Source: Monosiga brevicollis MX1
Taxonomy: Eukaryota > Opisthokonta > Choanoflagellata > Craspedida > Salpingoecidae
NCBI RefSeq assembly: GCF_000002865.3
Contig: NW_001865041.1
Location: 1,962,955-2,026,954, forward strand
Length of the DNA stretch: 64,000 bases
Reading direction: 5' to 3'
Part shown: one piece after another, positions 56,201-62,022 of the stretch
How positions within the stretch are numbered: position 1 is the stretch's first letter
How the letters are laid out: each line of letters starts with the position of its first letter
Notes under the pieces: model-generated
The model's input: the letters and a program-made list of their open reading frames with translations, nothing else
The model's database searches: none
What the model was told of the DNA's origin: nothing
Program-made: the position numbers and the translations under genes

Positions 56201-57600
56201 TTGCTTCAAGTTGGCCTCACGCGCTGCGCTTGCAGCACCATGGCCAACATCCTGAAGCTGTTTGATACAGATCGCACCCTGCTGGCACAGCGAGGTGCCT
56301 ACATCATTCGCACATTTTGTCGCTTCCTTGGTGCCGAGCGCGTGTACCGAAGCTTGGCTGGTACGTAAAACCATTACGAATGCGGTTGGCTACACAAAGT
56401 TGTGCGGGCTGATGCCGATCTTTCTTTGGCTGTGCAGGCAGCGTTTTGTCTTCGGCTGATCCTGAGTTTGCACCGGTGATGGTGCAACATTTGAACGTCA
56501 TCTTGTTGACGGCAACCGAGCTCTCGGAGCTTCGTCTTGCGATTCGCCAGTTAGCAACACCTGAAAGCAAGGCACTCTTTTGCGACCTCTATCGGCAAGT
56601 CCACCGTCTGCTGTTGCCCGCATGTGCTTGGTGCATCCTGCTTCTGCGAAAGCAGGCGCGGATCGACCATATTCACCATAACCTCAGCCCACCTCGTTGT
56701 TCATTCCAAACTTGTTTTCACTTTCTTCTTTGTGGCATCGGTAGGTGCTGGTGCTTTAGTCCCGTGTCAACCCTCTCCCTCTGTTTGCTGGGCCAAGTGT
56801 ACGATCATGCCTGTGACGTGCTGGCCAAGTGCGGCCAGGCTCCGCCCACTGTTTCCTTCCTTGTGGAGGTACGTCTCAACCTGGGTCCATTTCACCACAT
56901 TGATCATGCTTGTAACAAGGCAAGGGGTTCTCATCTTGGGCCACCGTGGTACCGCCACATTTGACTGGCGTGAACGTGTACCCAGGTCGATAAGCTGGTG
57001 CAACTCCTTGAGTCTCCAATCTTTACATATTTGCGCCTGCAACTGCTTGAGCCGCACACTTACAGCTACTTGATCAAGTGTCTTTATGGCCTACTGATGC
57101 TGTTGCCCCAGGTGAGCCAAGATCCCAGCCCCCTGCCACCCCCTCCTGCACGCCAATATGATGCTGTTACTCAATCCATTCGATTTTGGCTCCCAATCGT
57201 CCCCTATTTGAGCAGTCAACGGCCTTTATGACGCTCAAGACTCGCTTAGAGGTTATGCCAGTGGTTGCAAGCACGCTGGGGGATTTGGATCGGTCCGTGG
57301 CTTCGACGCGCGTTGATCTGTGAGCACAACTCTTTCCGGGTTATCAGACCTCATGTCGCGCTGCACCTCTTCATAGTGCCAACAAGGACAAGAGCAAGGG
57401 CGGCAACATTGGTAGCGGTCTACCCTTTGCAGAGCTCTTGGCTCACTACGATCAGATTCAGGTGCGTCCACCGGGGCATCTTACATGGCCACCTTACATG
57501 TTCACGATCCTGCACCACTCTGCCCGTAAGACGACCGTCATTCATGCTCCACATGCATCAACTGTTATAGGCGAGGGCAACGACGCATGTGCACGCCTAA
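53295..57600 (+). CDS. VAC14: VAC14, scaffold of the PIKfyve-FIG4 complex
   Basis: Twenty-two exons, 53295-53398, 53482-53527, 53617-53727, 53861-54100, 54213-54305, 54435-54545, 54646-54699, 54773-54836, 54995-55053, 55155-55234, 55317-55378, 55489-55550, 55662-55727, 55811-55876, 56032-56129, 56236-56360, 56438-56594, 56745-56868, 56986-57111, 57216-57319, 57377-57461 and 57571-57600, sum to 688 residues. The match to VAC14 is unmistakable: [18 protein letters not shown] at the start, [38 protein letters not shown], then [20 protein letters not shown] and [12 protein letters not shown] in the conserved C-terminal domain. VAC14 is a HEAT-repeat pentameric scaffold that joins the lipid kinase PIKfyve and the phosphatase FIG4 on endolysosomes. 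Two introns (after 55876 and 56594) need GC donors. The C-terminal tail is short. Confidence 0.96.
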
Positions 57601-58344: not shown

Positions 58345-61300
58345 TTAAAAGCAGAGTGCAGTTTGAAGTGCCAAAATGTCAGCACGCATGGCCTCCATGG
58401 CCTTGGCGTACTCGGCACGCTGAGCCTCGAGGACATCGATCTATCGCAGCGAGCGCGCGGTGTGCCAGACAGCAAATGAGGTGATGCGAAAATCATGCCG
58501 AGAAAGCAGCGCCGGTGATGGCCAGGCGGCCAGACGATCAACCCACCTCTTCATCATAGGCCTGGCCTCTTAGGTTTTGTTGCGCACGGTAGCGTTGCAT
58601 GTATTGACGTCGCCACTCCTTGGTTTTAGAGCGCGGTCGCGCGTCATCGTCCTTGTCATGCTCAACTGAGTGGCAGGTATCAGCACCGCTTGTTGATCCA
58701 GCACTGTTCATGCTTTCCGGGCTATCAGCAGATAGAATGGGGACGGTACTATTTCCACTTGCGGTGGCATCCGTCGCTGAGTAGTTTGGGCCGAGCGAGC
58801 AAGAGGGGATCAGAGGAAAGGGGAGTGAGGGCGCTGCTTCAGTGATATCGGGACACAGCGCGCGCGCGCGCGCAATTTGCAGCACTGGGAAGCTTGAACG
58901 CGAGTATGAGCCTGAGACGTACTGCTCATAAACTGCTTGAGAACCACCATTGATTGATCAGCTCCCACAGTTGTGGCCAGAGCAATTGGTAACTGGCCTG
59001 CAAATGATCGAGGCATGGACCGTGGGTAAGATTATAGGCACAGTTCAAGGTTACAGGCACATTTCACAAAGTTATGGGCACTGTTCACAGGATGATGGGC
59101 ACAGTTCACATATGCCACGGTAAAACCCAGTCGGGTGGCGACGTACCATCGACGGTCGGTGTGATGAGGAGAGAATTGAGACAGCCACGGTGCTGTGCAG
59201 AATTGAGAATCATCTTGACAACCTAAAAGTCCAAGGAAAATAAGGATGAGGGGTAGCAAGGCGGACAGAGTCATGATGAGCCGGCAAGGCGGTGCACCAT
59301 GAGACAAGGTTGACAATGATGAACATACAGATGGGTTATCTTCCCGAATGGCTAGCATAAGGCTAGTGTTATCGCGCTCGTCAGTGATACGCAGGTCCAA
59401 TTGCTCCGAGCCCAAAAGTACACCACAGCATGCCTCGGCGTTTGTAGCCGCCTGCACCAAAGACAACGTCACATGAGCAAAGCAGCAAAGGCAGCACAAA
59501 GACACAAAGTGCACATTGGCTCAGCTTCTAGCCAATGCACCAACGCACCGCCCAGTGAAGAGGAGTCCTAGATTGCCAGTCGGTCAAATTGGGATCAGCT
59601 CCCCGCTCGACAAGCAAGGCACAAAGTCGTTCGTTGTGCTACATGGCGCAACGTCCGGACCGCGTCAATGAGTAGAAGATGATGACACAGTCGCGTTTGT
59701 AATAAAAGGGAACGGCGCGTACCAGCATGCAGGCGAGATGGAGCGGGGTTTGGTGCCGTGAGTTGGTGTCATTGACATTCGCACCGAGCAGCAGCAGGGT
59801 GCCGCAGCCATCCAGGTCTTGCAGGTTAATTGCCAAGTGCAAAGGCGTGTAACCCTGAGGACAACGGGAAGTGGGGGGTGGCCATCAAAAACTGTGCCGG
59901 TCCACGGAACCGGCGCGAAGGACAAAGTGGAAAACGGCCGGCCATAGTCTCACATACCTCGACGTCGGGGCTGTTAATATGAGCGCCAGCTGAGACCAGG
60001 GCGGGAAGACAATGTGCGTTTTGGTGAAGCAGAGCCCAATGAAGGGGTTGGAGATCGTTTAGACGAGGCGCTGTTGAGTGTCGAGCCAGGCTGAGGGCAT
60101 GGGCAAACTCTACGTCATCATGGAAGGCAATGGCTTGCAGGAGGGCTGCAGCCCAAACATCAGGACTAGCCAACGTCTCAAGCAAGTGATTGGCCTGAAA
60201 CATCAGGGCCGGGTCGCCATTGAAGCGGGGCGGGGAGAGAAGGGCGGCATCGGACTGGGCGCCAGCCGAGGCAGCCATCATCTCCGAGTCGCTGTAATTG
60301 GGCAAGGATTCATTGCTGTCGGTGTGGCTTGCAGCACTGGCACTATGCGTCGTGAGCTTTGACATGCGCGTCGGCGGCTGGCTTTCAGAATCATCGTTAT
60401 GTTGGCGGCGCTTGCGGGACAGCATGAGGAGCAGAGCGGCGCCAAAGGCAATGAGCACAACTACGGAGGAGACGGTGGAAGCCAACACGGCGCGTTGAAA
60501 AGCAGCCGCTCCTGAGCGAGATCCATCGCCGTTGGCTGTGGTAGTGGGTGGGGTCGTGGAGGTGGTGGGTGTGGTAGTTGCTGTGGTAGTGGGTGTGGTC
60601 GTGGAGGTGGTGGGTGTGGTAGTTGCTGTGGTAGTGGGTGTGGTCGTAGAGGTGGTGGGTGTGGTAGTTGGTGTAGTGGTGGGTGTAGTGATGATGGCGG
60701 CGGCGGCGGCGGTGGTGGTGGTAGGGACGGCGGTCATGTTCACATCACAGATGCGGCTCGGATCCAAGCTTGGCTGAGCCTGCGGAAGTAGGTTGCTGGC
60801 TACTTCTGATGTCGTGGGTATATCAAATTCATATCCATTGATCATAACGTGGGATCGACTGCCCACAAAGTCATGGCTGTTGACGCGAAGGTCGCGTGCC
60901 ACGGCTGAGAAGGAAAGAATTTGGCTGACGTTTGCAAATACGAGGCGCATGTCAGTCTTGGTCAGGTCCAAGACAACGTCACCGAGGGAGGCGCACGCCT
61001 CGAAAACTACCAGGGTTTCTAACTTTGAGCTCTATCGTCATGGGGCAGGGTAGAATTACGTGAGGATTCAAGTATGGGGCAAGCCGTGACCACCTGAAAG
61101 CGAAGGCACATCGGAGCGTACCTTCCCGGCAAAAGCTTGGAAAACATCAATTGAGGCCAGGGCAAGGCGGTTTTCGATTTTAGCTCGATCGGCTACGTCC
61201 ACGTGAAGCCGGGACACGTGTGTTCCAGTCAAGCTCAAGGCATTGATTTGATCCCGTGCGGGCGAGTTGTCGCAAAAAATCATGGAGTGGAGGGTGCGGT

Positions 61301-62022
61301 TACGACCGAGATTAAGCGTCACTTCAACGCCTGCCTGGGCGGCAAAATGAATGAGGACCGTGTCCAAGTGCACGGAACAGGGGGCATTCAGCACGACGGC
61401 AGAGGCGCCATTGTGGATGATGGTGATGATGACAGCTTCGGCGGAAGACAAGGGTTCGAGGTTGATAATGGTCGTGCCGCGGCGATTGATGACAAAGTTG
61501 AGTGTGTTGTTGAGTGTTGTGACGTTGGAAAATGGCCAGGTCCAAGTGGCGATGCTGGCAGATACCTCTGTCCCTGCTTCATCGTCATCTTCGTCCTCAT
61601 CTTCGTCCTCATCTTCGTCCTCATCTTCGTCCTCATCTTCGTCATCATCTTCGTCATCATCTTCGCCCGGGCCAGCTGGAGTGCTGGCTGTGATATCTAT
61701 CTGGTAATCTTGGAACGCATTGACAGCATCGGCTTGGGTGGGCAGGGCAGGGGCTCCATCGAGGACGTTCAGTGCTTGGCAGGGTCGATTTGTCTGCCGA
61801 CGAAAAAGTATGCGAAAGAGTGTGTGAGAGAAAGGGGGGAAGCCCGTGCAAGTTTATGTCATGCGGTAAATGGCGTGGTGGGATAGCACGGGGTCTGTTT
61901 GCGCGACGCACCTGGTCCCAAGTGCTGGCTGCATGGCCCGAGGCCAAGCGCAGGGTGAAGAGACAAAAACACAGGACGATGCCAGAGTGAAACACCATGA
62001 CGATCGTGCTGAGGAAACCCAT
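58345..62022 (-). CDS. Single-pass receptor-like protein: Thr-rich stalk, TM, intracellular ankyrin repeats, basic/heptad tail
   Basis: Read from 62022 the N-terminus is a signal peptide (FHSGIVLCFCLFTLRLASG). An exon from about 61805 to 61121 carries an Asp/Glu tract and a beta-rich ectodomain with sequons (NVT, NNT, NRT). The next exon (about 61012 to 59958) adds FEACASLGDVVLDL, a Thr/Pro mucin-like stalk, one TM helix (AVLASTVSSVVVLIAFGAALLLM), stop-transfer SRKRRQ and the first ankyrin units. Later exons encode GYTPLHLAINLQDLDGC, RTPLHWA, TSLMLAIRED and a last degenerate unit, about six repeats in all. The final exons (about 58760-58555 and 58443-58345) encode KTKEWRRQYMQRYRAQQ followed by a heptad helix (IDVLEAQRAEYAKAMEAMRA). 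The topology recalls Notch but no EGF or LNR module is present. Ectodomain family unknown. Confidence 0.75.
60525..60720 (-). repeat. Thr-Pro codon repeat (mucin-like stalk)
   Basis: Imperfect 36-base repeat (GGTGTGGTAGTTGCTGTGGTAGTG on the plus strand), coding TTTPTTTA/TTTPTTST on the minus strand. Confidence 0.85.
61570..61670 (-). repeat. (GAAGATGAG GAC)n acidic codon repeat
   Basis: TCATCTTCGTCC units on the plus strand encode an Asp/Glu tract of about 28 residues in the ectodomain of the ankyrin protein. Confidence 0.9.

What the first reader, a model, noticed from the sequence alone, without database searches (positions are those of the whole stretch)
58345..62022. Notch-like topology without EGF repeats, ending in a basic plus heptad tail
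Seen: signal peptide, ectodomain, Thr-rich stalk, one TM with SRKRRQ stop-transfer, about six ankyrin repeats, then RRQYMQRYRAQQ followed by a helix with I/R/M/I/L at a-positions and L/Y/M/L at d-positions. The tail looks like a degenerate bZIP (the invariant Asn is missing). Inference: a membrane-tethered regulator that could be released by proteolysis and act in the nucleus.
Basis: partly seen in the sequence, partly recalled or inferred. Interest (0 to 1): 0.7.

Follow-up and report, generated by a model that had tools for sequence, protein, structure and literature searches.

The report
Membrane ankyrin protein with coiled-coil tail
This is a probable choanoflagellate cell-surface protein laid out like the animal receptor Notch but without its outer domains, and its tail looks like a pairing coil rather than a DNA-binding zipper.

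Summary
A 10-exon gene model on the minus strand (62022-58345, nine GT-AG introns, 889 aa) encodes a signal peptide, an acidic run, a beta-rich ectodomain, a Thr-rich stalk, one TM with SRKRRQH, 6-7 ankyrin repeats and a C-terminal helix. In-frame codon usage is the best of six frames in 9 of 10 exons, including the last two; no transcript was available.

The tail has a heptad pattern above chance (9 of 10 a/d positions core; 17 of 20,000 shuffles as good). It is not a bZIP: 1 of 5 signature residues, no bZIP match in Pfam or PDB, and the basic half scores like its shuffles (4,795 of 20,000 reach it).

The host is probably the choanoflagellate Monosiga brevicollis (inferred). The genome also holds a TM-ankyrin gene with two LNRs, fitting the published 'Notch-like' gene. 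Both carry KRRQH after the TM, but homology is not significant, and the ankyrin array lies nearer a generic consensus than NOTCH1.

Best reading: a dimerising membrane ankyrin scaffold; proteolytic release is possible but untested. Presenilin, CSL and reverse-NOTCH1 searches did not complete.

The parts
58345..62022 (-). whole coding span, 10 exons, 889 aa: 62022-61912, 61793-61122, 61022-59958, 59854-59723, 59638-59549, 59451-59329, 59222-59147, 58997-58923, 58776-58547, 58440-58345
   Evidence: GT-AG splice model; in-frame codon score best of six frames in 9 of 10 exons, the exception being exon 1
61930..62022 (-). signal peptide, about aa 1-31 (end set by eye)
   Evidence: hydropathy above 1.6 in all 19-residue windows starting at aa 1-10; no signal-peptide predictor run
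61578..61664 (-). Asp/Glu run, aa 81-109, on a 12-bp tandem array
   Evidence: 7.4 copies, 96% matches
61122..61577 (-). ectodomain core, exon 2 part (aa 110-261); beta-strand-rich, possibly a beta-solenoid
   Evidence: AlphaFold2 from a single sequence, mean pLDDT 59, pTM 0.62; Foldseek against PDB: 30 matches at E<=10, none at E<=0.001; ectodomain query without the acidic run: best Pfam E 0.068
60786..61022 (-). ectodomain core, exon 3 part (aa 262 to about 340)
   Evidence: the four matches at E<=10 in the own genome are the gene itself
60534..60728 (-). Thr/Pro-rich mucin-like stalk (aa 360-424), on a 45-bp tandem array
   Evidence: 3.4 copies, 95% matches
60420..60491 (-). single transmembrane helix, about aa 439-462
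   Evidence: hydropathy peak 2.51
60399..60419 (-). stop-transfer SRKRRQH (aa 463-469)
   Evidence: sequence; KRRQH also follows the TM of the C55 Notch-like gene
58923..60155 (-). ankyrin array, aa 551-781, over the end of exon 3 and exons 4-8 (introns in between)
   Evidence: Pfam Ank_2 2.3e-29, PF00023 in 5 stretches; PDB ankyrins, best 3.4e-60
58577..58627 (-). basic helix KTKEWRRQYMQRYRAQQ (aa 832-848) at the bZIP basic-region position
   Evidence: 1 of 5 signature residues; 4,795 of 20,000 shuffles score as well
58345..58576 (-). short coiled coil, aa 849-889 (58576-58547 and 58440-58345)
   Evidence: 9 of 10 a/d core residues; 17 of 20,000 shuffles of the last 38 residues reach the observed fraction

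Best explanation
A type I membrane protein of a choanoflagellate. A beta-rich ectodomain stands on a mucin-like stalk; inside the cell a six- to seven-repeat ankyrin scaffold ends in a helix that dimerises through a four- to five-heptad coiled coil. The most likely mechanism is that ligand binding or clustering outside changes which partners the paired ankyrin scaffold holds at the membrane; the basic stretch before the coil would bind acidic partners or lipid, or serve as a nuclear localisation signal. Shown by sequence: gene structure, topology by hydropathy, ankyrin repeats, heptad pattern. Inferred: dimerisation, surface location, scaffold role, signalling.
For: Gene model and coding frame; TM and signal peptide by hydropathy; ankyrin repeats; heptad pattern above chance, with the zipper half in the fixed register reached by 6 of 20,000 shuffles; no DNA-binding signature; beta-rich ectodomain model; the downstream neighbour is a Vac14 gene on the + strand, so the tail is not read in from that gene.
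Against: No orthologue could be examined, so conservation of the tail is unknown. The coil is short, with one Arg at an a-position and two Tyr at d-positions. No coiled-coil program was run. The ectodomain model is low-confidence (mean pLDDT 59). No transcript or localisation data were available; in-frame codon scores of exons 1, 5, 7 and 9 are slightly below zero.
Confidence: 0.55

Rival explanations
1. Membrane-tethered regulator. ADAM-type shedding and gamma-secretase cleavage release the ankyrin-coil fragment, which enters the nucleus and works there through the ankyrin repeats with a partner, as Notch does, without binding DNA itself.
For: Topology; basic juxtamembrane and tail stretches that could serve as NLS (by eye); presenilin homologues and genes partly homologous to TACE are reported for M. 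brevicollis (PMC10970066 passages), and presenilin for all surveyed eukaryotes except Fungi+Microsporidia and Alveolata (PMC2770060 passages).
Against: No RAM WFP motif in the cytoplasmic part (motif recalled; sequence). The ankyrin array scores 190 against a generic consensus and 157 against NOTCH1. Presenilin in this genome was asked for seven times and CSL once, without an answer.
Confidence: 0.27
2. Membrane-tethered bZIP that binds DNA with its own tail once released.
For: Spacing from the first Arg of RRQYMQRYR to the d-positions equals bZIP spacing (+18, +25, +32, +39, +46). The ungapped score peaks sharply at that register (7.1, next -12.6) and 5 of 5,000 shuffles reach it.
Against: Signature residues Asn13, Ala16, Ala17 and Ser/Cys20 are absent. 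bZIP HMM: tail 0.4 bits, full protein -4.3, the 16 sequences it was built from 55.6-74.6. Ungapped: comparison bZIPs left out in turn score 37.2-67.2, and 7 of 32 tropomyosin windows reach the tail's 7.1. Basic half like its shuffles.
Confidence: 0.04
3. A diverged paralogue of the genome's LNR-containing Notch-like gene, that is, a Notch-type intracellular half carrying a different ectodomain (this can be true together with the readings above).
For: Both have SP-ectodomain-TM-ankyrin order and KRRQH after the TM. Of 38 TM-plus-basic segments found in the scanned loci and the window, only these two match (K/R)2-4, an optional Q/K/R/E/A, then H. The NOTCH1 juxtamembrane, recalled, reads LSRKRRRQH.
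Against: BLASTP of this protein with the 748 aa in hand of that gene gives E 2.1 at best; its ankyrin part could not be fetched. TM segments find no Notch in PDB. None of the 60 PDB sequences shown of 336 matched by the ankyrin part is a Notch.
Confidence: 0.12
4. Gene-model artefact: the tail exons belong to another transcript.
For: No RNA evidence available; exon 9 read through its donor ends after two codons (VG, stop), so intron retention would remove the coil.
Against: GT-AG splice sites and frame kept; exon 9 and 10 coding frames score best of six, exon 10 highest of all ten; the next gene downstream is on the other strand.
Confidence: 0.05

Closest known systems
Notch receptors (metazoan)
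   Same: Signal peptide, ectodomain, one TM, basic stop-transfer, six to seven ankyrin repeats
   Different: No EGF, LNR or NOD/NODP in the Pfam scan, no RAM WFP motif by eye; ankyrin array nearer to a generic consensus than to NOTCH1; ends in a coiled coil
Monosiga brevicollis 'Notch-like' gene (Gazave et al. 2009, PMC2770060 passages; here G000:C55, about 1217850-1220788)
   Same: SP-TM-ankyrin order, KRRQH after the TM; same genome if the C55 gene is the published one
   Different: That gene has an EGF-like stretch (by eye), two LNRs and a long linker before the ankyrin repeats; the window gene has neither EGF nor LNR
Choanoflagellate Notch homologue of Mylnosiga fluctuans (Richter et al. 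2018, PMC6040629 passages)
   Same: TM followed by ankyrin in a choanoflagellate
   Different: Reported with EGF, Notch (LNR), TM and Ank in canonical order; no sequence compared here
Membrane-bound bZIP factors (ATF6, CREB3 group)
   Same: Coil in a membrane-anchored protein
   Different: Those have a real bZIP domain, N-terminal and cytosolic (recalled; bZIP flagged in PMC12724719 passages); here the tail is C-terminal and lacks the basic signature
Ankyrin-repeat scaffold proteins
   Same: Canonical repeats, best PDB match ankyrin-1
   Different: Receptor-like layout with one TM

Membership tests
Notch | EGF repeat(s) | tested here: not met
   none among the 13 Pfam families listed for the whole protein at E<=10
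Notch | LNR (PF00066) | tested here: not met
   not; the four LNR matches at E<=1 in the genome lie at C55 and C43, none in the window
Notch | single TM followed by ankyrin repeats | tested here: met
   hydropathy and Pfam
Notch | RAM domain with WFP motif after the TM (motif recalled) | tested here: not met
   no WFP in the cytoplasmic sequence (by eye)
Notch | Notch-specific ankyrin similarity | tested here: inconclusive
   local score 157 against NOTCH1 and 190 against a seven-fold consensus, NOTCH1 itself 290 against the consensus; 3 of 7 window repeats (0, 4, 5) score higher against some single NOTCH1 repeat than against the consensus, 4 of 7 lower; reverse search not answered
bZIP | Asn13, Ala16, Ala17, Ser/Cys20, Arg21 (PMC4736632 passages) | tested here: not met
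   R, Y, M, Y, R: 1 of 5
bZIP | leucines at positions 31, 38, 45, 52, 59 | tested here: inconclusive
   Y, L, Y, M, L: 2 of 5 Leu, 5 of 5 hydrophobic or aromatic
bZIP | family HMM match | tested here: not met
   no bZIP family at E<=10 for tail or whole protein, no PDB match of the tail at E<=10, own HMM 0.4 bits
two-stranded coiled coil | a/d heptad pattern above chance | tested here: met
   17 of 20,000 shuffles; number of strands not tested
Ankyrin-repeat protein | Pfam Ank above curated cut-off | tested here: met
   Ank_2 102.2 bits, cut-off 27.3
gamma-secretase substrate | cleavage in or near the TM after shedding | not testable with these tools
   needs protein work

The most novel reading that the evidence does not exclude
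A second, EGF- and LNR-free branch of Notch-type TM-ankyrin proteins in a choanoflagellate, whose intracellular half pairs through its own C-terminal coil and is released by regulated proteolysis. This would suggest that the TM-KRRQH-ankyrin module travelled with different ectodomains before animals arose.
Probability: 0.1. Interest if true: 0.8.

Novelty: new variant of a known kind. Interest (0 to 1): 0.38.

Why it matters
A Notch homologue with the canonical domains is reported in one choanoflagellate, and the authors infer Notch in the common ancestor with animals while not excluding convergent shuffling (PMC6040629 passages). A TM-ankyrin receptor without EGF or LNR, in a genome that also holds an LNR-containing Notch-like gene, offers a concrete second gene to place on the tree and to test for cleavage: is the TM-ankyrin half older than the rest of Notch?

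Tried and rejected
Rejected: DNA-binding bZIP. A gapped alignment of the tail to Maf was considered by eye and dropped because gaps break the helical register; no call tested it. Known ectodomain folds: Foldseek gave 30 matches at E<=10, none at E<=0.001; several rows are beta-helix, left-handed beta-helix or LRR proteins (fold names recalled), which is not significant. Whole-protein Pfam matches CENP-B_dimeris (4e-4) and MAM33 (0.0031) span the acidic run and lie below their cut-offs, taken as composition. Ectodomain relatives: viral contigs (9 pattern matches, 0 confirmed) and prokaryote genomes (227 pattern matches, 0 confirmed). Ectodomain paralogues in the own genome: 4 matches at E<=10, each the gene itself; only 2 candidates were scored. 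Copies of the tail: the 83-aa exon 9 piece found one match at E<=0.001, itself; of 130 matches at E<=10 with the 305-aa ankyrin-plus-tail query, 8 are the gene itself and one other reaches past query residue 239, at E 0.147 with a stop inside (C56:53892-54119). Notch TM similarity by PDB search: none.

Not completed because the genome machine did not answer: reverse search with the NOTCH1 ankyrin domain, presenilin PF01080, CSL PF09270, and the rest of the C55 gene. A KRRQH pattern count of the genome was planned and never sent.
Full report
Gene. On the minus strand, ten exons between 62022 and 58345 join at GT-AG introns of 84-149 bp into one frame of 889 codons; seven introns are phase 0 and two phase 1. 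A codon-usage score was trained on the longest open frames of at least 350 codons: 20 frames, 11,867 codons, from the 34 of 49 loci left after dropping those that overlap this gene or repeat another locus. The coding frame scores highest of six in 9 of 10 exons; in exon 1 one reverse frame is higher (0.08 against -0.06). Exon 10, the zipper exon, has the highest in-frame score (0.44); exons 1, 5, 7 and 9 score slightly below zero in frame (-0.06 to -0.22). The nine introns score below zero in all three forward frames, -0.17 to -0.96. The next gene found downstream is on the + strand and carries a Vac14 C-terminal domain (PF11916, 1.8e-25), so the two genes converge.

Source. The window lies in a 39.47 Mb genome of 57 contigs. 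It holds four LNR matches at E<=1 at two places: two in a frame at C43 that reads by eye like a GNPTAB-type protein, and two at C55 in a 1015-aa frame. Two ankyrin matches lie on the same strand in a frame of the same length. The C55 frame also shows a hydrophobic N-terminus, an EGF-like stretch and a TM by eye. This is the domain set that Gazave and colleagues printed for a 'Notch-like' gene of Monosiga brevicollis (PMC2770060, passages seen); their sequence was not compared. I therefore take the genome to be M. brevicollis by inference; no tool named it.

Topology. The segments with 19-residue hydropathy above 1.6 are aa 1-28 and aa 434-466. The ectodomain holds an Asp/Glu run from a 12-bp array, a beta-rich part, and a Thr-rich stalk from a 45-bp array. 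Without the acidic run the ectodomain's best Pfam E is 0.068; with it, weak matches below cut-off appear (CENP-B_dimeris 4e-4, MAM33 0.0031). AlphaFold2 on the exon 2 part alone (152 aa, no alignment) gave mean pLDDT 59 and pTM 0.62 with long strands and one four-residue helix. Foldseek found nothing significant (30 matches at E<=10, best 0.29). A beta-solenoid is a guess. Own genome, viral contigs and prokaryote genomes gave no relative of the ectodomain.

Ankyrin part. Pfam and PDB agree on canonical ankyrin repeats; none of the 60 PDB sequences shown (of 336 at E<=1e-8) is a Notch. Three of seven repeats (0, 4 and 5) score better against some single NOTCH1 repeat than against the consensus, four do not; seven tries against one favour NOTCH1 here. 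The reverse search of the genome did not complete.

Juxtamembrane. The window gene reads LSRKRRQH, the C55 gene QAKRRQH, and NOTCH1, from memory, LSRKRRRQH. A six-frame scan of the window and 38 of 49 loci (11 that overlap the gene left out) found 38 distinct TM-plus-basic segments; two match (K/R)2-4, an optional Q/K/R/E/A, then H, and they are these two genes. The sample is small and includes spurious frames. PDB searches with the two TM segments found no Notch, and BLASTP of the window protein with the 748 aa of the C55 protein in hand gave E 2.1 at best; the ankyrin part of that gene could not be fetched. Homology is open.

Tail. With d-positions set by bZIP spacing from the first Arg of RRQYMQRYR, the d residues are Y, L, Y, M, L and the a residues I, R, M, I, L: 9 of 10 are core residues (I, L, M, V, F, Y, W, C), against 2-4 in the other six registers. 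A bZIP HMM was built (script) from 8 recalled bZIPs and 8 of the 35 own-genome matches; six of those eight are over the Pfam cut-off, L009 and L011 are not. It gives the tail 0.4 bits, the full protein -4.3, and its own training members 55.6-74.6. Shuffling only the basic part gives at least the tail's score in 2,812 of 5,000 cases, shuffling all in 1,030 of 5,000 (4,954 reported), shuffling only the zipper in 385 of 5,000, and 28 of 32 tropomyosin windows reach it. In the ungapped register test the bZIP register stands out (7.1, next -12.6) and 5 of 5,000 shuffles reach it, but so do 7 of 32 tropomyosin windows, while the comparison bZIPs left out in turn score 37.2-67.2. Split in two, the basic half scores 2.9 (comparison bZIPs 20.7-40.9; 4,795 of 20,000 shuffles as good) and the zipper half 4.2 (comparison 5.2-26.4; 6 of 20,000 shuffles as good). 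Four of the five signature residues (PMC4736632, passages seen) are changed. So the heptad pattern is real, a bZIP is not shown, and direct DNA binding is unlikely.

Mechanism. The anatomy best fits a surface protein whose paired ankyrin scaffold holds partners at the membrane. Release by shedding and gamma-secretase is plausible because presenilin is reported for M. brevicollis (PMC10970066 passages), but I could not look for the enzymes in this genome.

Literature. Eight searches (the listings of 31, 48 and 63 show 15 of 71, 15 of 189 and 8 of 80 papers) listed no title or abstract start that describes a choanoflagellate TM-ankyrin protein with a coiled-coil or bZIP tail. The M. brevicollis genome paper (King et al. 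2008) was not held, so I cannot say whether this gene is the ankyrin 'cassette' gene counted there. Richter et al. report a Notch homologue in Mylnosiga fluctuans and a subset of Notch domains in five other choanoflagellates (PMC6040629 passages). Passages only, no whole paper, were seen of PMC2770060, PMC12724719, PMC6040629, PMC4810162, PMC4736632, PMC10970066 and PMC7649014.

Noticed in passing
G000:C55:1217850-1220788 (-), loci L046 and L048: Gene with a hydrophobic N-terminus, EGF-like stretch (by eye), two LNRs, TM, KRRQH and ankyrin repeats in one 1015-aa frame; fits the published M. brevicollis 'Notch-like' gene. After KRRQH it reads ERLAPAPEEDG, reminiscent of GQLWFPEGF in NOTCH1 (recalled).
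   Followed up: partly
window 56413-56964 (+): Vac14 C-terminal Fig4-binding domain, the convergent neighbour gene.
   Followed up: partly
L009 (G000:C36:411046-411207): Sub-threshold bZIP match with EWRRDNNRTAAKDLR, sharing EWRR with the window tail; by eye the heptad register differs by three residues.
   Followed up: no
window 59028-59110: Small tandem repeat (units of 19-21 bp, GGCACAGTTCACA-like) inside the seventh intron of the gene.
   Followed up: no
L041 and L045 (G000:C41:217219-217803): Ankyrin array, best non-self match of the window's ankyrin part (40% identity); by eye an inversin-like array.
   Followed up: no
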